Shown: piece by piece, positions 24,100-32,066 of the stretch
Layout: every line of letters starts with the position of its first letter
Position numbering within the stretch: position 1 is the stretch's first letter
Assembly: GCF_016806835.2 (NCBI RefSeq)
Contig: NZ_CP086111.1
Location: 5,945,471-6,009,470, forward strand
Direction of reading: 5' to 3'
Origin: Skermanella rosea
GTDB lineage: Bacteria; Pseudomonadota; Alphaproteobacteria; Azospirillales; Azospirillaceae
DNA length: 64,000 bases
The notes under the pieces: model-generated
What the model saw: only the letters and a program-made list of their open reading frames with translations
The model's database searches: none
Told to the model about the DNA's origin: nothing
Program-made: the position numbers and the translations under genes

Positions 24100-24164
24100 C
24101 GCGGCGCGTGGGTCGGGCGATAATGGAAGCGGGAGGTTTTGCCCGCCGTTCCAGCCGCCGCGAA

Positions 24165-24250
24165 GCGTTGGGCCACGGCCCGACCTAGGGTTTGACGCAG
24201 GGCAGAAGTAACGCATCCCGTCGATCGTAGGTTGGGCCGCGGCCCAACGC
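24165..24250. repeat. Inverted repeat, intergenic
   Basis: Arms of 23 nt, 24165-24187 (GCGTTGGGCCACGGCCCGAC then CTA) and 24228-24250, complementary except for two positions. Each arm is itself nearly palindromic (TTGGGCCGCGGCCCAA), so the structure resembles a REP-like dispersed element. It lies between the response regulator and the IS630 element. Confidence 0.65.
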
Positions 24251-24326
24251 GTCGGCCCGGCTTCCCCAGGCAGGTCAAACGGATCGGGCTTTGCTCTAGT
24301 GGCTCGGCACAGTGGTTTTGATGAGT

Positions 24327-25460
24327 TCAGGCGGCTTGCTTGAGGGAGGGCTCCGGATCGGGATAGGCATGGCCCATCTTCTCACGCGCCCGCTCGGTGG
24401 TGAACATCCAGGTAATGCGGGCGCCCTCGGCGTTGCGCCGGCGCTGCCAGGCTGCCACCTCGGCCTCGAGGCGCTCGCGCTCGGCGATGCGGCGGTCCAG
24501 GCACTGGGAGCGCAGCACGCCGATCTCGATCTCGACCATGTTCAGCCAACTCGCGTGCTTGGGCACGAAGTGGAAGTCCAGCCGGCGCAGCACCCGGCGC
24601 GCCTCGCACGCCGGGAACGCCTCGTAGAGCGCCCCGGCCGAATGGGTTGACAAATTGTCCAGCACCACGCGGATCCGCTCGGCCTCGGGGTAGTGGACGT
24701 CGACCAGGTCGCGCATGCACGCGGCGAAGTCGCGCCCCGTGCGCCGGTCGGTGACCTTGACCGCGCGCCAGGGGCGGTGCGCGTCGAGGAACACGAACAG
24801 GTTGGCGGTGCCGTTGCGCCGGTACTCATAATCGAACCGCTCCGGCTGCCCCGGCGCGGCCGGGACCGGCTCGCGCGCCTCGCCGATCAGCTGGGTCGGG
24901 CTCTCGTCGAAGCACACCACCGGGCGCGCCGGGTCGGGCGCCTCGGCGTAGAGGTCGAGCACGTCCTCCATGCGCGCGACGTACTCGGCGTCGACGCGCG
25001 GGATGCACCACATGTCCCGGCGCCACGGCTTCAGGTCGTTCTCGGCCAGCCGCCGCCGGACCGTCTCGCCGGACACGGCGTCGTGCCCGGTCAACGCGAC
25101 CAGCGCTCCCGCCAGCAGGTCGAGCGTCCAGCGCGCCCGGCCCTCGGGCGGCTCGGAACAGGCGGTCGCCACCAGCAGGGCCTCCTCCTTGCCCGACAGC
25201 TTGCGCGGCGCCCCCGGCCGCGGCCGTTCGCCCAGCGCGGCGTCCAGGTTGCCCGCGACGAAGCGGCGCCGGGTCCGGTGCACCGTGGCCGTGCCGACCG
25301 CCAGGGTGGCGGCGATCGCCTCGTCGCCGTGGCCCGCGTCGGCCGCCAGCAGGATCTGCGCCCGCTTGACCTTGCGCACGGCTTGCCGACCCCCGCTGAC
25401 CAGGGCCTGCAGCTCGGTCCGCTCGGCTTCGCTCAGATCCACGCGGTAGCGTACAGTCAT
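24327..25460 (-). CDS. IS630-family transposase
   Basis: 377 residues. The N-terminal helix-turn-helix region (VRKVKRAQILLAADAGHGDE, then AIAATLAVGTATVHRTRRRF) is followed by the DDE catalytic core: Asp in VVCFDESPTQL, Asp in RVVLDNLSTHS, and Glu in WLNMVEIEIGVL, typical of IS630/Tc1-mariner. The ATG at 25460 follows AGGAGG with good spacing. The frame is uninterrupted and it lies inside intact terminal repeats, so it may be active. Confidence 0.95.
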   Translation of the reverse strand: MTVRYRVDLSEAERTELQALVSGGRQAVRKVKRAQILLAADAGHGDEAIAATLAVGTATVHRTRRRFVAGNLDAALGERPRPGAPRKLSGKEEALLVATACSEPPEGRARWTLDLLAGALVALTGHDAVSGETVRRRLAENDLKPWRRDMWCIPRVDAEYVARMEDVLDLYAEAPDPARPVVCFDESPTQLIGEAREPVPAAPGQPERFDYEYRRNGTANLFVFLDAHRPWRAVKVTDRRTGRDFAACMRDLVDVHYPEAERIRVVLDNLSTHSAGALYEAFPACEARRVLRRLDFHFVPKHASWLNMVEIEIGVLRSQCLDRRIAERERLEAEVAAWQRRRNAEGARITWMFTTERAREKMGHAYPDPEPSLKQAA

Positions 25461-25495
25461 CGGGCCTCCTCGACGCTCAAAGCCCCGACAACCCG

Positions 25496-25783
25496 ATGGC
25501 CGCCGCGATGTCACAGCCCCACCCGGAACCGAATTTCACGCCCAAGCAAGGGCAGTATTTGGCGTTCATCCACGCCTACACCTGCATCAATGCCCGACCG
25601 CCCGCCGAGGCCGACCTGCAGCGCTTCTTCGGCGTCACCCCGCCCACCATCCACCAGATGGTCCTCGCCCTCGAACGCACCGGCCTCATCCAGCGCACCC
25701 CCGGTGCCGCCCGCAGCATCAGGCTGCTCGTGCCACCGGAGAGCCTGCCGGTCCTTCAAAGGCCCGAAGCCAGCTCATCATAA
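25496..25783 (+). CDS. LexA-like winged-helix protein, passenger in the IS630 element
   Basis: 95 residues. The core (FTPKQGQYLAFIHAYTCINA, then RPPAEADLQRFFGVTPPTIH) is the LexA-type N-terminal winged helix; QMVLALERTGLIQRTPGAAR continues the domain. The autoproteolytic LexA peptidase domain is absent. It is divergent from the transposase (35 bp apart) and its stop lies inside the right terminal repeat, so it belongs to the element. A second ATG (25508) is possible. A role as repressor of transposition is inferred, not shown. Confidence 0.75.
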   Translation: MAAAMSQPHPEPNFTPKQGQYLAFIHAYTCINARPPAEADLQRFFGVTPPTIHQMVLALERTGLIQRTPGAARSIRLLVPPESLPVLQRPEASSS

Positions 25784-25849
25784 TCACTGTGCCGAGCCAC
25801 TAGGCGGCGGGTGTCGGCTCCGCATCCTTCTCCGGCAGGGGAATTCCTA

Positions 25850-25964
25850 CAAGAGGTGCCCAGTTCGGCGACCTGCGCCGCCTGACGCTCGATCAGCGCC
25901 GCCTGCTCGACAGTAGGGCATCCTTCTCAGCCTCCCTCAGGCGGTAGCGTGGCGGTTTCTCCAT
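25850..25964 (-). pseudogene. Remnant of an IS66-like transposase N-terminus
   Basis: From an ATG at 25964 the frame reads MEKPPRYRLREAEKDALLSS and stops soon after. In a shifted frame it continues AALIERQAAQVAEL, the coiled-coil-like start typical of IS66 TnpC. The rest is missing: the IS630 element begins about 50 bp beyond. Short and decayed, so the family call is tentative. Confidence 0.4.
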
Positions 25965-26088
25965 CCCATCGTTGACTTATATTCCAAGCTGTAGCGCAAC
26001 CCTTTTCGCTAACCCCGTGAGCAATCACCTGAGCGCTCCCCGAAATGCATTCTCAGCACCGTCGAATACGAAAAATCAATTGTTCCAT

Positions 26089-28869
26089 TCACGATGCTAA
26101 ATAAACTGTACTGATATCTCTAGGTGTATCAAGTAGGATTCTGGTCTCTTCCTCCCAATAGATTGTATATTGATAACCACAATACTCCTCCATTTTTCGA
26201 ACTTCTGCCTCTAGCCACTGGCGCATATGGGTGGCTACGTAAGATTTCTTAATGTTTGTTTTGGAGACTCTTGAGGATATCTCCGAAACAAGGTCGTCGT
26301 GTGTTATTATTCCACAACGAAGAGCATAAACAAAGCAGTTCAACACACCTCCGAACAACTTATCATCATTCTTGCATATTAAGAAAATTCTTTTCCAAAC
26401 CTCCATTGGTAAATGGTGATACAAAGAGCGTTTAGATTTCGCGCTAATGCGAGCCACTTCGTGATCAGCGATCCCACATCTATGAATTGTGTGAAGAGCT
26501 TCAACAATGTCATTAAATCTATTTGGGTGATCTAGCCGGTTGCGTTGGCGATAGATTAGCGCAAGTGGGATCGATAATACCGGATCAAACATCCTGTCTA
26601 CATCTAACAATACAATTTCGATAGGAATCAACATGTGAACATTGTGGATTTCATAGAACTTCTCAAAATCACTGTTATACCACCTCCAGTAGAAACCAGC
26701 ATATGAGGAATCCTTTAATGCCATATCATACAAGTAGGGCTTTACCAGTTCCTTGGCTTTCATTGTTGTCTCATGAGGTAATCTAACTTCCTTAGATAAT
26801 ACTCCAATTGGAAATGTGGAATCCCTTCCACTGGTGATTGCAGCGCACGCAGCCAATGAAACAGGTCTCGTCGAACCTAAGATCTGCTTAGCAAAAAAAT
26901 CCCCCATTGTACTTCTAGCAAAATCTCTCCGGTCCTGAGTACAATTGGATGCAACATTTATGATATCCAGTTCTAAACGATCTTTCTTATCTACAGCAGC
27001 ATCAAAACTTATTGAGCAGATCAGATTGCAAATTTCTTTGATATCGGCTTCTGATCCAGGAAGATATTCGAGCGCTCGAGCTGAGAATAGTAAAACTGCA
27101 GATAAATCTTGTCTCTCGAGAAGAGCCTTTTGGATACTATTTTTTAGCAAATTAACGGCAATGGCAATCCTTTTCTGATTACGGAAAGTTTTAATTTGAA
27201 GTGCAAGATGTGAAATTACGTCCCACTCTCTATTTATTATACGAGGCATTAGGGCAGTGATTAGCTGCTCCACTGTCTCGTGTATCTCATCTAAATTTCT
27301 AGCAAAAAAGTACTCCAAGAACGTTTGATGACTAAATTTATATAGATCTGGGGAGAACTCGGACATAACCCAAGATCTTTCAGTGACAAACTTTGTAACT
27401 AGCTTTGCAGCTTGGTTGGACTTGGCCCGACTCTCAAAGAGATCTCCAAAATAAGACTTGTTTTGTTTCTCTATCCAATCCTTATCAACACCCTCCTCAA
27501 GATTTGCATGACCATATATTCTGGATGCCAAATCGCTGAACAAATGCAGCATATCAAAACCTGGAGGAATCTCTGCACGAATATCCCGATTCTGATCCCA
27601 TTTCTCAAACATCAATATGGCACATTCTTTATAGATCTCTGGTCTGTTCGATGGTACATTGCCCTTCATTGTGAATAGATATGACATTAGGCCAAGCATT
27701 AATGGATTCTGACGTAGGTCATTCGCATTCTTTTCCGTTTGCCTCAGAAAATCGTTTGCGTGATCCAGTGCGTCTTGTTTCTTCAGCCCTGCTACAACTT
27801 GCATAAATTTTGAAAGGTAGGAACGGATCTCGGGTTCGTCAAATCTTTCTAACACAAGCTCCTCAAATTCGTTAGATAGTTGAGCGTCTTCATAGCCTAT
27901 CAAACGAGAGGTTACAATAACTGGGCACAAAGGATATTCATCACAGAAATTTAGAACAAGCTGCACAAATTCCCGCCGCCTAGCAGTATTTAATATCTCG
28001 TCTAATCCATCAAACGCCAAAATGGCTCGGCCATAGCCTAATAGGTACTTAAGACTGTTTACCGCTTCGTCCTCTGCAATCGTTATTAATTTTCTAATAT
28101 CGTTTACTAAGTACTCAAACAGTCCTAGCTGGACATTCTCAAGCCTAGCCGCTTCAAAATTTCTCAGTACAATTCTCAAAGGGACCTTTAAATTTCTCGA
28201 TTCGAATTTGGATTTTTCATCTGGATATTGAAAATGAAGAGAACATTGCTTAGCAAGCTCGAAACATAAATACTGGCAAAGTGTTGACTTTCCTCCGCCA
28301 GGATCTCCTAAGACAACTACTCGCCGAAAACTGGATCGAAAGTCACCATAACTAATCTTAGAAAATAGGATATGCTTCTCCGTTTCGGTCTCCTCCAGTA
28401 TCTTTCCCCTCTCTCGCGATTTATCGAGCACAATATCTGCTAAACGCATGTGTGTTTCCGACAACTGTCTGTAGCGGAGCTTGGATGGAATGTAAATTTT
28501 GTTTATGTCTATTGGCTTAGATCCTTTATTTGTTTCAATTTGTATTGTCCTGTAGTTCGATTGCAAGCCCTTGGATATCCTCTGTAGACAATTTATTGTA
28601 TTTTCGTAAGGATCTCCGTTATCTACAAGAGACAAAGCTAGCGAAATCTTTTCATCAACTAAATCAATCCGTTGCAAAATTTCATTTGATAAGGACCTCA
28701 TTGCTAATGCAAGTGCATCATCATTAAACATATACTGCATAGATGCTTCAAATGAAGTCGCTATCTGTTCATAAAGCTTAGTAGAGTTACCGCAGTTTTC
28801 TCCGAGTACAAGGTCATGCAACTTGACGAATGCCTCCTGTGTAAATGGGCAACGTTTCTGTATAACCGC
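26089..28869 (-). pseudogene. NACHT-domain NTPase (STAND, probable anti-phage), 3' part of an IS-interrupted gene
   Basis: 926 codons after the insertion point. Walker A VVLGDPGGGKSTL and the NACHT-type Walker B AILAFDGLDEIL (a 'DGLDE' box) lie near residues 272 and 372 of the reconstructed protein. The sensor region includes PVIVTSRLIGYEDAQL and KFSHQTFLEYFFA, the usual end of NACHT modules. A helical C-terminal region of ~400 residues could be the sensing part; no TPR, WD or LRR pattern was recognised. Base composition is far more AT-rich than the genome, a sign of horizontal transfer. Bacterial NACHT proteins are established anti-phage defence genes; this role is inferred from family. The 5' end lies beyond the ISAs1 element (30155-30415). 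The frame stays open into the element as far as 29082, so a chimeric product is conceivable. Confidence 0.88.
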
Positions 28870-28879
28870 CTGCTCGGCC

Positions 28880-30154
28880 CAGGGCTGTTCAGTTCTCGCT
28901 ATGAGAGGCGATATGCGAGCGCATTGTCGAAGTTGAGCGCGTTGACGTAGAGTTCGCGGGCGATGTTCTGGACGCCGTTGGCCCGCAGGATGTTGATCGC
29001 GAAGCTGCGGAACCGGGCGACGTGGGTGGGCTTGACGCGGGTTCGGCTGGCGTCCTCGCCGAACGTGACGTCGCGGACCCAATGGCTCCGGTTTTCAATC
29101 GCCCAGTGCCCCCGGACCGCCCGTCCGAACGCCTCGGCGCCGAGCGCGACCTGGCAGGCGTAGAACGAGACGTCCTCGGTGGCGTGCCACAGGCCTGACC
29201 TGGTGTCCTTGTGCCAGGTCAGGCGGGCGACGCGGGCGGCGCAGACGATTAGGCCGTCCCATTCGGCGTCGAGTTTGCCCCGGACATCGAAGGTCTCGAC
29301 CGTGCGGGTCTCGTGGCGGCCGTGGCCCTTGGGATCAACGCTCCTGTGGCTTTCGGCCGGGGGCTGGGTGGCGGCGATGGCCTCGAGCGTGGCCAGCAGG
29401 GTCGGCTGGTTGGCCTTGACCTGGGCGAGCAACGCGTTGCCGGTGTCGCGGGCCGCCTCAAAGGTTTTTTTGACAGTGCAGCGCGTCGGCGGTGAACAGC
29501 ACGCCGCTCAGGCCGAGCTCCGCGATCAGGCGCTGGGCCGCCGGGATCTCGTTGCTCTTGTCGTCGATCTCGCTGTGCGCCAGCAGGATCGCCGCCTCCG
29601 AGGCGAACGCGCTGAGCGCCTGGGCCGCCTTGCGGTCGTTGAGGTGGTCGAAGCTGCCCTTGAGCGTCTTGCCGTCGAGCGCGATCGCCGGCATCCCGCC
29701 CTCGGGGCGCGCCAGCAGGCTGGCGGCGTGCCGGCGGAACGCCCGCTCCAGGGCGTCGGCGTCGAGGTCCTGGAGCACGGTGCGCAGGGTGTTGACCGAT
29801 GGCGCCCGCCTCAGGGCGACGCCGAACAGCTCGTTGAGCAACTCCCGGCGCTGCTCCAGGAAGACGATGATGCGGCGGTACGAGGTCGCGCCGGACAGCA
29901 GCGCCAGCACGGTGAACAGCAGCAGCGGCGCCAGCGGGTAGCGCTTGCCCGCCGCGCGCCGCGGATCGGGAACCTCGCCCAGGGCCGCGAGAAGCCGGCC
30001 GAACGGTACCATGGCAACCCCCAAGTCCAGGAATTGCCGAGCAAGGATTCACACATTCGCGCGAGATGGTAGACTCTTTCTACGCTGCTTCACACCCCGC
30101 CAGGACTCGCTGCGCGCGAGTCAGGCGCGCAACGGGGAGAACTGAACAGCCCTG
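28880..30154. mobile_element. ISAs1-family insertion sequence interrupting the NACHT gene
   Basis: 1275 bp bounded by perfect 18-bp inverted repeats, CAGGGCTGTTCAGTTCTC (28880-28897) and its complement (30137-30154). Both sides carry the direct repeat CTGCTCGGCC (28870-28879 and 30155-30164), a 10-bp target duplication as ISAs1 elements make. Taking out the element plus one repeat rejoins the NACHT frame exactly. It is GC-rich, in contrast to the AT-rich gene it sits in. Confidence 0.95.
28899..30012 (-). pseudogene. ISAs1-family transposase, frameshifted at an A7 run
   Basis: Two frames together give a ~370-residue ISAs1 transposase. The first (30012 to ~29467) contains EVPDPRRAAGKRYPLAPLL and AIALDGKTLKGSFDHLNDR with the catalytic Asp, and ends HCQKNL then stop. 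The second holds LLAQVKANQPTLLATLEAIA, RGHWAIENRSHWVRDVTFGE with the catalytic Glu, and runs to 28899. The switch occurs at seven adenines; six would restore HCQKTFEAARDTG. It is either an inactivating insertion, slippage-dependent expression, or a read error. Confidence 0.85.
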
Positions 30155-30415
30155 CTGCTCGGCCATTGCTGTTACTAAACCGCTCTTTTCAAATTCACGT
30201 AAAAAACGTTCTAGATTAGATGTAAGCTCTCCATAGTAACTTCCTACAACTATCTCATAATCAGCCAGCGCTCTTTGAATGGCTGGATTGCTTATTCTTG
30301 TTCCCTTGAGAGCAGAATCTACTTTGTTGAGACGCATTACTTTCTGGAATGCGATCGGGCCGATTCGGCTCAGTGCTGTGTTGAAAAGCGATCCTAGTGT
30401 GCTGCTAACTAACAT
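30155..30415 (-). pseudogene. NACHT gene, 5' fragment upstream of the ISAs1 insertion
   Basis: 87 codons from an ATG at 30415 (AGAGG 8 nt upstream) to the insertion point: MLVSSTLGSLFNTALSRIGP... ending TAMAEQ. The remaining 3' part resumes in frame with AVIQKRCPFTQEAF. Together they give a helical N-terminal region ahead of the NACHT module, in the position of the effector or NNH (NACHT N-terminal helical) domains. AT-rich like the 3' part. In its present state it would be read through into the element for about 20 codons. Confidence 0.85.
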
Positions 30416-30731
30416 TTATCGAACCTCTAAAGCGCCTTCGGCGGGGCATCACAATCTCCCATAAACTAACAGAGAAAGCATTAGCTGTATAGCATCGAAA
30501 CCCGTCGCGCTAAAAGGTCGATTACATACTATCATAGTCAAAGTAATTGTTCCTTTCCGCCAAAGTCGAAATTATGTTCATCCTAGCGATAGCATGGGAA
30601 AGCGACTGCCTGCGTCGCCATAGGCTTCCTGCGGACGCTGCTGAAGGTGGTGGTGCACTACACATTGCCTACCGGTTGAGAGCGCCTAACAAAACCTTGG
30701 CTTAATAGCGGGCCGTGCCCAACTGATTGGC
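30416..30731. other. Gene-free AT-rich leader grading into IS debris
   Basis: 316 bp. The first ~170 bp are AT-rich and probably hold the NACHT promoter (leftward). From about 30600 the composition becomes GC-rich and looks like the left part of the decayed insertion sequence that follows. No gene is supported. Confidence 0.45.
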
Positions 30732-31235
30732 ATGTCCGAACCTCTTGTCAGCGATGAGTTTTGGGCGGTTGTGGCGCTGCTATTGCCGTCCCGTCCGGCA
30801 CGTCCGTAAGGTGGCCGGCCACCGTTTGATGACGGGGCGGCCCTGACCGACATCCTGTTCGTTCTGAAGAGCGGCATTCCGTGGGAGATGCTGCCACGGG
30901 AGATGGGCTGTGGTTCAAGCATGACCTGCTGGCGGCGGCTTCGCGACTGGTAGGCCGCCGGGTATTGGGAAAAAGCTACACCATGTTCTGCTGGACCGGT
31001 TGGGCAAGTCCAATGCGATCGACTGGATTCGGGCGGCACTGAACAGCGCCAATGTTCCGGCAAACAGGGGGATGTCGGCACAGGGCCGAAACCCGAAAAC
31101 GGACGAGAGTGTCAGGAATTTCGTGTAGTCGGATGCTGGAAGCCACGGTCGATGCTGTCCCTCCGATCCGTCAGTGCGCCGGCCGGCCACGCCGCCGGCG
31201 GGCCAAGCTTCATGGGGACAAGGCTTATGATTTCT
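30732..31235 (+). pseudogene. Decayed IS5-family transposase
   Basis: Reading from ATG 30732: MSEPLVSDEFWAVVALLLPS, then an in-frame TAA, GGRPPFDDGAALTDILFVLK, SGIPWEMLPREMGCGS, WRRLRDW and a TAG, then frame changes. Later fragments read VDAVPPIRQCAGRPRRR and KLHGDKAYD. These are the ordered motifs of IS5-type transposases; the C-terminal catalytic part is missing. Several stops and shifts make it non-functional. Confidence 0.8.
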
Positions 31236-31337
31236 CCAGGGAAGGTGTCACTAAGACCATGATCCTATTTCCCTTGAAAATCAACCTACGCCATGGTAAG
31301 GAACCAATTCCTTTTCCCTGGTTCCGAAGGCCCCACC

Positions 31338-32066
31338 ATGCCCGCTCCAGTCCCCGTTCCCTCTCCCGCTCCGGCCCCCGCCGTCCCCTCCATCTACACC
31401 CCCCTCCCGCACCGCCAGGAAGCCTTCGCCCGGCACGTCGCCGCCGGCAGGGGCTATGCGGGGGCGGCGCGGCTGTCCGGCTATGCCTGGGCAAGCGCCC
31501 GCCAGACCGGCTCGCGCCTGATGAAGCAGCCGGAGGTCGCCGCCCGGGTGGTCGAGCTGACCGAGGCCGACAAGACCCGCCGCCATGCCGAGCTGGACGA
31601 GCTGGTCGCCGCCGCCAAGCGGGTGCTGATCGACGCCATGGAGAAGCAGAACCATTTCGCCGCCCTGCGCGCCATCGACCAGATCGCCCGCCTGCGCGGC
31701 CTCGCCGGCCCCACGGCGGAGGCCCGCGATACCGCGCTCGACGCCGACCCCGAACCGGACGACAACGCCTCCGCCTGCTCCTCCATCGCCGAACCCGAGG
31801 CCCAGTTCGAGCCGCAGATGCCGCCCGCCGGCCTCGCCCCGGTCGAGCCCGCGCCCGAGGACCCGGAAAAGGCCGATGCCAGGCAGTCCAAGGCGCACAA
31901 CCGCCATATCAACCGCTGTATCGAAACCCTCAGGAAGCGGCACCCCGACCTCTACGCCCGGGTCCGCCGGGGCTCGATTGAGGATGCCGGCCTCTATTTC
32001 GACGCGGGCCTCAACCTCCTGCCGGCCGACCGCTGGCCGGGCGCCGCCTCCCCGGCGCATCCGTGA
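31338..32066 (+). CDS. Orphan terminase-small-subunit-like protein
   Basis: 242 residues. After a Pro/Ala-rich start (PVPVPSPAPAPAVPS), residues ~20-75 resemble the DNA-binding N-terminal helix bundle of Terminase_2 phage small subunits (LPHRQEAFARHVAAGRGYAG, SGYAWASARQTGSRLM). The middle is acidic and the C-terminus (NRHINRCIETLRKRHPDLYA) is basic. No large terminase, portal or capsid gene is nearby, so it is not an intact prophage. The ATG at 31338 follows GAAGG. It may be a domesticated phage gene or a cellular HTH protein. Confidence 0.6.
   Translation: MPAPVPVPSPAPAPAVPSIYTPLPHRQEAFARHVAAGRGYAGAARLSGYAWASARQTGSRLMKQPEVAARVVELTEADKTRRHAELDELVAAAKRVLIDAMEKQNHFAALRAIDQIARLRGLAGPTAEARDTALDADPEPDDNASACSSIAEPEAQFEPQMPPAGLAPVEPAPEDPEKADARQSKAHNRHINRCIETLRKRHPDLYARVRRGSIEDAGLYFDAGLNLLPADRWPGAASPAHP

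What the first reader, a model, noticed from the sequence alone, without database searches (positions are those of the whole stretch)
26089..30415. NACHT anti-phage-type gene split exactly in frame by an ISAs1 element
Both halves of a NACHT NTPase are present. Removing 28880-30154 plus one copy of the 10-bp duplication CTGCTCGGCC joins ...TAMAEQ to AVIQKRC... without any frame change, giving a single 1013-codon gene. This shows the insertion is recent and the rest has not yet decayed. The N-terminal ~250 residues ahead of the P-loop and the ~400-residue C-terminal tail match no domain I know, so the intact homologue could define a new NACHT subtype. The IS and gene are co-oriented and the frame remains open into the IS, so a truncated or chimeric NACHT protein could still be made.
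Basis: partly seen in the sequence, partly recalled or inferred. Interest (0 to 1): 0.85.

Follow-up and report, generated by a model that had tools for sequence, protein, structure and literature searches.

The report
Bacterial immune-type gene broken by transposon
A bacterial relative of animal NLR immune sensors has recently been cut in two by a jumping gene; its family is widespread, only the first, helical part of the protein looks unfamiliar, and a sister species carries other immune-type genes at the same chromosomal place.

Summary
An ISAs1-family element (28880-30154, perfect 18-bp ends, 10-bp duplication) sits in a minus-strand NACHT gene: 87 open codons before it (30415-30155), 926 codons plus stop after it (28869-26089). 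The halves belong to one protein: in Sphingosinithalassobacter (L084) the N piece aligns to residues 29-111 and the C piece starts at 115. The insertion is recent: seven identical copies in the genome, six with a perfect 10-bp duplication. Open homologues exist (Sphingobium SYK-6, Rhizobium Leaf306) and the family is common (416 relatives in one capped scan), so this gene alone is no new NACHT subtype; its helical N-terminus, however, has no Pfam family over cut-off and no solved fold. The NACHT module resembles NLRC4/NLRP3. One read-through chimera is impossible. Beyond the finding: the same slot holds a TIR-STAND/SIR2/SMC-like operon in one same-genus species and about 1 kb in another, and three of the five members of the window's subclade look cut by different mobile elements. 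An anti-phage role is inferred, not shown.

The parts
30155..30415 (-). N-terminal piece of the NACHT gene, 87 codons; ATG at 30415 with AGAGG just upstream
   Evidence: aligns to L084 residues 29-111
28880..30154 (-). ISAs1-family element, 1275 bp, perfect 18-bp inverted ends
30155..30164 (.). target duplication, copy 1 (CTGCTCGGCC)
28870..28879 (.). target duplication, copy 2 (CTGCTCGGCC)
29458..30024 (-). transposase, first ORF (DDE_Tnp_1_assoc, PF13808)
28899..29432 (-). transposase, second ORF, in another frame
   Evidence: no Pfam match of its own at E 0.001
26089..28869 (-). C-terminal piece of the NACHT gene, 926 codons plus stop
   Evidence: aligns to L084 from residue 115
27802..28326 (-). 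NACHT domain (PF05729), P0001 residues 182-356
   Evidence: 32.3 bits, cut-off 26.7
28282..28308 (-). P-loop GDPGGGKST, P0001 residues 188-196
24147..31284 (.). segment that differs between same-genus genomes (exchange slot)
24327..25514 (-). transposase with DDE_3 and HTH domains (IS630 type; type name recalled), inside the slot
25496..25783 (+). small winged-helix protein (LexA_DNA_bind), inside the slot

Best explanation
A single-gene bacterial NACHT (STAND, NLR-like) protein, horizontally acquired into a chromosomal slot that same-genus species fill differently, and recently split after codon 87 by an ISAs1-family element present in seven identical copies. Intact members consist of a helical N-terminal domain of about 270 residues, the NACHT module, and a helical C-terminal tail. 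Most likely mechanism (inferred from NLR kinship): the tail senses a phage or stress signal, nucleotide exchange lets the NACHT module oligomerise, and the N-terminal helices act as effector or adaptor that stops or kills the cell. In this strain the system is probably off, because the N-terminal domain is cut about a third of the way in; at most a fragment with NACHT and tail could be made by restart. Shown: the split, its recency, the homology, the variable slot. Inferred: defence role, division of labour between domains, loss of function.
For: Split and homology. Recency: 7 of 7 full copies 100% identical, perfect 10-bp duplication at 6 of 7, both pieces free of stops. NACHT over the Pfam cut-off. 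AlphaFold2 model of the open homologue L042 (mean pLDDT 76.2) finds NLRC4 first in the PDB (E 3.7e-9), then NLRP3, NOD2, NAIP5, with Avs3 at rank 42. Foreign origin: 40-43% GC and GC3 0.37-0.38 against 67.7% for the window and GC3 0.95 for the neighbouring dehydrogenase; rare in kin: 2 of 82 genomes of the order at E <= 1e-60, own included. Slot: TIR/NB-ARC/TPR + SIR2_2 + AAA_23 genes in G002 at the same place. Bacterial NACHT proteins of other clades defend against phages (PMC12169576, passages).
Against: No functional data. No PADLOC or NCBIfam defence model fits: mad8 E 0.0043, EruA 38.7 of 1000 bits. Flanks of 27 relatives show little defence company: each PADLOC model shown matched at most 2 of 100 ORFs, and no control set was run; the Pfam families shown are mostly metabolic (25 of 68 shown). 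Foldseek TM-scores are low over the whole chain (TMq 0.19-0.31 for the 42 hits at E <= 0.001), so the likeness is to the NACHT module, not to the ends. The slot comparison rests on 3 genomes.
Confidence: 0.7

Rival explanations
1. The insertion does not fully silence the gene: a shorter NACHT protein is made by restart in the C piece (TTG 28821 or ATG 28740) or from TTG 29082 in the element, and acts as a deregulated or dominant-negative fragment.
For: C-piece frame open up to TTG 29082 inside the co-oriented element; TTG 28821 has AGGAGG 11 nt upstream.
Against: The only minus-strand promoter-like match in 28500-30700 lies upstream of the N piece (2 sites found on both strands, 0.7 expected, so no evidence either way). 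AGGAGG lies within coding sequence and its spacing is long. A restart product lacks at least the first third of the N-terminal domain.
Confidence: 0.15
2. The protein is an NLR-like regulator with a cellular task (stress or development), not an anti-phage protein; its loss is neutral drift.
For: Flanks of relatives look mostly metabolic; many bacterial STAND proteins are regulators (recalled).
Against: Patchy distribution, foreign composition, and TIR-STAND/SIR2 genes at the same place in G002.
Confidence: 0.12
3. Assembly artefact: the element was wrongly placed in the gene.
For: Seven identical copies invite misjoins; one copy (L010) lacks matching flanks.
Against: The flanks of this copy carry the same 10-bp duplication and are the two halves of one homologous protein; a misjoin would hardly give that.
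Confidence: 0.03

Closest known systems
Bacterial NACHT (bNACHT) antiphage proteins, clades 6 and 14
   Same: Single-gene architecture with a central NACHT module; clade 14 has no readily discernible effector domain (PMC12169576, passages), as here.
   Different: Clade 6 has an N-terminal PD-(D/E)XK nuclease; here Pfam shows no nuclease and the N-terminus is helical. The SNaCT and NCH1 tails of clades 14 and 6 could not be tested. Phage defence not shown here.
EruA (NCBIfam NF058535), NACHT antiphage protein
   Same: Best NCBIfam match, in the NACHT region only (P0001 residues 283-429).
   Different: 38.7 bits of a cut-off of 1000.
Animal NLRs (NLRC4, NLRP3, NOD2, NAIP5)
   Same: Best solved-structure matches of the modelled homologue L042; presumably the NACHT module.
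   Different: 13-15% identity for the NLRC4, NLRP3 and NOD2 hits; whole-chain TM low; no CARD/PYD or LRR found by Pfam.
ISAs1-family insertion sequences
   Same: Transposase domain PF13808, inverted ends, 10-bp duplication, related plasmid elements annotated ISAs1.
   Different: Transposase in two ORFs in all seven copies.

Membership tests
NACHT / STAND NTPases | NACHT domain over the Pfam cut-off | tested here: met
   32.3 bits, cut-off 26.7
NACHT / STAND NTPases | Walker A GxxGxGK[ST] and Walker B with acidic pair (motif names recalled) | tested here: met
   GDPGGGKST at residues 188-196 and FDGLDE at 286-291; G188, G193, K194, D287, G288, D290 and E291 invariant in 4 of 4 aligned sequences
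NACHT / STAND NTPases | NLR-like fold | tested here: met
   Tested on the homologue L042, not on the window protein: NLRC4 E 3.7e-9, TM low over the whole chain
bNACHT clade 6 | N-terminal PD-(D/E)XK nuclease and NCH1 tail | tested here: not met
   Nuclease: no Pfam match over cut-off outside NACHT/NPHP3_N in P0001, P0002 or the nine proteins. NCH1 tail not tested.
bNACHT clade 14 | SNaCT C-terminal domain | not testable with these tools
   No model matched; the defining paper is not held
bNACHT antiphage proteins | Protection against phages | not testable with these tools
   Needs a bench test
EruA (NF058535) | Score over the curated cut-off | tested here: not met
   38.7 of 1000 bits
MADS mad8 (PADLOC) | Clear model match | tested here: not met
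   E 0.0043, 14.6 bits
ISAs1 family | ISAs1-type transposase, terminal inverted repeats, 8-10-bp duplication (range recalled) | tested here: met
   PF13808 E 1.4e-20; 18-bp ends and 10-bp duplication, perfect at 6 of 7 copies; plasmid relatives annotated ISAs1
ISAs1 family | One intact transposase ORF (recalled) | tested here: not met
   Two ORFs, same in 7 of 7 copies

The most novel reading that the evidence does not exclude
This branch of NACHT proteins carries an undescribed helical N-terminal effector whose activity is so costly that the gene is repeatedly switched off by whatever transposon is at hand: the window, G016 and Sphingosinithalassobacter copies are each cut by a different mobile element at a different place, while the slot that holds it is traded between unrelated immune-type cassettes in sister species.
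Probability: 0.22. Interest if true: 0.6.

Novelty: new member of a known kind. Interest (0 to 1): 0.36.

Why it matters
It is an NLR-like gene caught shortly after inactivation, with open homologues named for testing. If silencing by mobile elements holds up in a larger sample of this subclade, it would give a measure of the cost of carrying bacterial NLR-like immunity. If the helical N-terminus proves to be an effector, a common NACHT family without a specific label would gain a function. The slot comparison gives a concrete place in this genus in which to look for further immune-type cassettes.

Tried and rejected
Scans with the C piece alone found no relative in viral contigs or genome contigs; a three-sequence profile then did in genome contigs. 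Pore-forming N-terminal helix: the first part was more hydrophobic than the rest in 23 of 37 relatives and reached a mean Kyte-Doolittle value of 1.6 in only 5 of 37, so no membrane claim is made. Sequence search of solved structures gave only weak matches (best E 0.21 for P0001; 0.069 for L042). Defence-island association of the family: weak, descriptive only (100 of the 101 ORFs listed were given, one L042 ORF dropped; ORFs were picked by length, not by gene calling; 25 of 49 PADLOC and 25 of 68 Pfam families were shown; no control set). Single chimeric protein: rejected. Start sites were chosen by a rule that favours a P-loop near residue 265, so that table is no evidence for protein length; stop-to-stop lengths are used instead. 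The 83-row tree dropped L041, which looked identical to L026. SIR2 and SMC-like proteins of G002: no match in plasmids. Paper searches: listings only; none of the titles listed is about an IS-cut bacterial NACHT gene, which does not prove absence.

Papers: PMC12169576, PMC8195603 and PMC13236601: passages only. PMC10294775 (Kibby 2023): not held, known from citing passages and recall. Others: search listing only.
Full report
OBSERVATION. The stretch 25800-30700 was read directly. A 1275-bp element at 28880-30154 has perfect 18-bp inverted ends and lies between two copies of CTGCTCGGCC. On the minus strand 87 open codons precede it (30415-30155, P0002) and 926 codons plus a stop follow it (28869-26089, P0001). 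The pieces were not joined; each was searched alone.

ONE GENE. Single homologues span the junction. In Sphingosinithalassobacter portus (L084) the N piece aligns with residues 1-84 to ORF residues 29-111, and the C piece begins at ORF residue 115 with its own residue 1; the three unaligned residues of the N piece fill 112-114. Scores are 105 and 296 (L084) and 95 and 262 (G016) against shuffled maxima of 46, 55, 40 and 59 in 200 shuffles each. For L042, L043 and L029 the N piece aligns more weakly (59, 67, 60 against 54, 48, 48). Residues before the P-loop: 274 here (87 + 187); 281 in L042 and 289 in L043 counted from the preceding stop, thus upper bounds. From the P-loop to the end: 739 here, 728 and 741 there.

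RECENCY. The genome holds seven full copies of the element, all 100% identical, one 100-base piece at 96% and two matches of under 50 bases. Six of seven full copies have a perfect 10-bp duplication; L010 has none. It is ISAs1 family: DDE_Tnp_1_assoc domain, and related plasmid elements are annotated so. The transposase is in two ORFs through a frame change at a homopolymer run, the same in all copies. Slippage in expression, transposase supplied in trans, or a systematic sequencing error are possible; none was tested.

COULD A PROTEIN STILL BE MADE? Not by reading through: 1285 extra bases are not a multiple of three and stops intervene. The N-piece ORF gives 111 residues (end 30080); the C-piece frame opens at TTG 29082 inside the element, and TTG 28821 has AGGAGG 11 nt upstream. 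The one minus-strand promoter-like match lies upstream of the N piece; two sites were found on both strands where 0.7 (sd 0.8) are expected, so this says little.

WHAT IT IS. Pfam gives NACHT (32.3 bits, cut-off 26.7) and NPHP3_N (32.5, cut-off 24.8) and nothing over cut-off elsewhere in P0001 or P0002, nor in the nine proteins (eight relatives and the G016 N piece). NCBIfam EruA matches at 38.7 of 1000 bits; PADLOC only mad8 at E 0.0043. AlphaFold2 on the open L042 homologue with 37 sequences gave mean pLDDT 76.2 and pTM 0.73, with residues 1-51 below 50: helical N-terminus, small beta hairpin, NACHT module, helical tail. Foldseek found 42 PDB chains at E <= 0.001, NLRC4 first (E 3.7e-9), then NLRP3, NOD2 and NAIP5, Avs3 at rank 42; TMq is only 0.19-0.31. 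The N-terminal domain modelled alone (L084; pLDDT 74.8, pTM 0.46) has no PDB match better than E 1.4; with such a pTM this is weak evidence for a new fold.

HOW COMMON. They fall in Actinomycetota, Cyanobacteriota, Pseudomonadota, Acidobacteriota, Planctomycetota, Methanobacteriota (archaea) and Zixiibacteriota. Near home the gene is rare: at E <= 1e-60, 2 of 82 genomes of the order (own and G016) and 1 of 398 of the phylum sample (own); at E <= 1e-30, 2 of 385 of the class sample (own and G115). At E <= 0.001, 8 of 59 relatives, own included, have some NACHT match. A tree of 83 rows puts the window in a five-row clade (96/96) with G016, L084, L042 and L043; the inner group of window, L084 and G016 is poorly supported (81/62), and L084 fills only 24% of the columns.

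CUT COPIES. Three of these five look cut by different mobile DNA. The window by the ISAs1 element. G016 by an element just after the P-loop with three further copies in that genome at 100% over 907-912 bases (IS5-like by eye, not tested); the downstream part also holds a TAG and a TAA. L084 ends at a contig edge: 126 of the last 127 bases also open another contig of that genome, and the two diverge where NACHT homology ends, with CTAG at both borders. I read this as a third insertion, but only the border is seen and an assembly branch at some other repeat is possible. L042 and L043 are open. Five members found by pattern scans are a lead, not a rate.

SLOT. The flanks of the window gene (histidine kinase and response regulator up to 24119-24146; terminase-like gene and NAD-glutamate dehydrogenase from 31285; names by eye except the terminase-like gene) stand together in 3 of 5 genus genomes (G000, G001, G002). 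In G004 they lie on different contigs; G003 has no long match to the left flank. Between them lie about 7.1 kb here, 1.0 kb in G001 and 9.4 kb in G002, of which about 1 kb is shared by G001 and G002. The G002 insert encodes, in one direction, a TIR/TPR protein of 1023 aa with NB-ARC below its cut-off, a SIR2_2 protein of 815 aa and an AAA_23/SMC-like protein of 971 aa; PADLOC gives these only partial domain-level matches. The window insert also holds a DDE_3 transposase and a small winged-helix protein. The NACHT pieces have 40-43% GC against 67.7% for the window.

AGAINST. Of 100 flanking ORFs from 27 relatives, each PADLOC model shown matched at most two (MADS-like, type I and II methylases), and the Pfam families shown are mostly metabolic; no control set was run. 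A Rhodococcus plasmid relative has an N-6 DNA methylase gene upstream, a single case. Function is not shown for this subfamily in anything I saw.

LITERATURE. Bacterial NACHT proteins of clades 6 and 14 protect E. coli from phages (PMC12169576, passages). Misregulation of a bacterial CARD-NLR-like operon is highly toxic to Caulobacter (PMC13236601, passages), which makes silencing by transposons plausible. The paper that defined the bNACHT clades is not held.

VERDICT. Observation confirmed; interpretation partly supported; a new member of a known kind, with two side results (the exchange slot and the cut copies) that are more interesting than the split itself.

Noticed in passing
L123:2053-10348 (G002, same slot as window 24147-31284): Three genes in one direction: TIR/TPR protein with weak NB-ARC, SIR2_2 protein, AAA_23/SMC-like ATPase. 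The SIR2 and SMC-like proteins have no tblastn match in the plasmid collection; the combination may deserve its own look.
   Followed up: partly
window 28899-30024: Transposase of the element is in two ORFs through a frame change at a homopolymer run, identical in 7 of 7 copies, although the element looks recently active.
   Followed up: partly
L007-L013: All seven full copies lie on the same strand of their contigs, chance about 1 in 64 if orientations are random; one copy (L010) lacks the duplication.
   Followed up: no
L018/L025/L128 (G016) and L084/L109/L110: Two of the nearest homologues also look cut by mobile DNA, of other kinds and at other places.
   Followed up: partly
window 24141-24200: A short repeat at the left edge of the slot; one search lists 8 further places in G000 (42-62 bases) and more in its sister genomes.
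   Followed up: no
window 31052-31250: Plus-strand translation looks like a remnant of an IS5-type transposase at the right edge of the slot (motif recalled, not tested).
   Followed up: no
window 31293-32066: Orphan terminase-small-subunit-like gene (PF03592 26.3 bits, cut-off 26.1) kept beside the slot in G001 and G002 too.
   Followed up: no
G000:C1:3815801-3816298 (L001): The genome has another NACHT frame well over the Pfam cut-off (57.3 bits).
   Followed up: no
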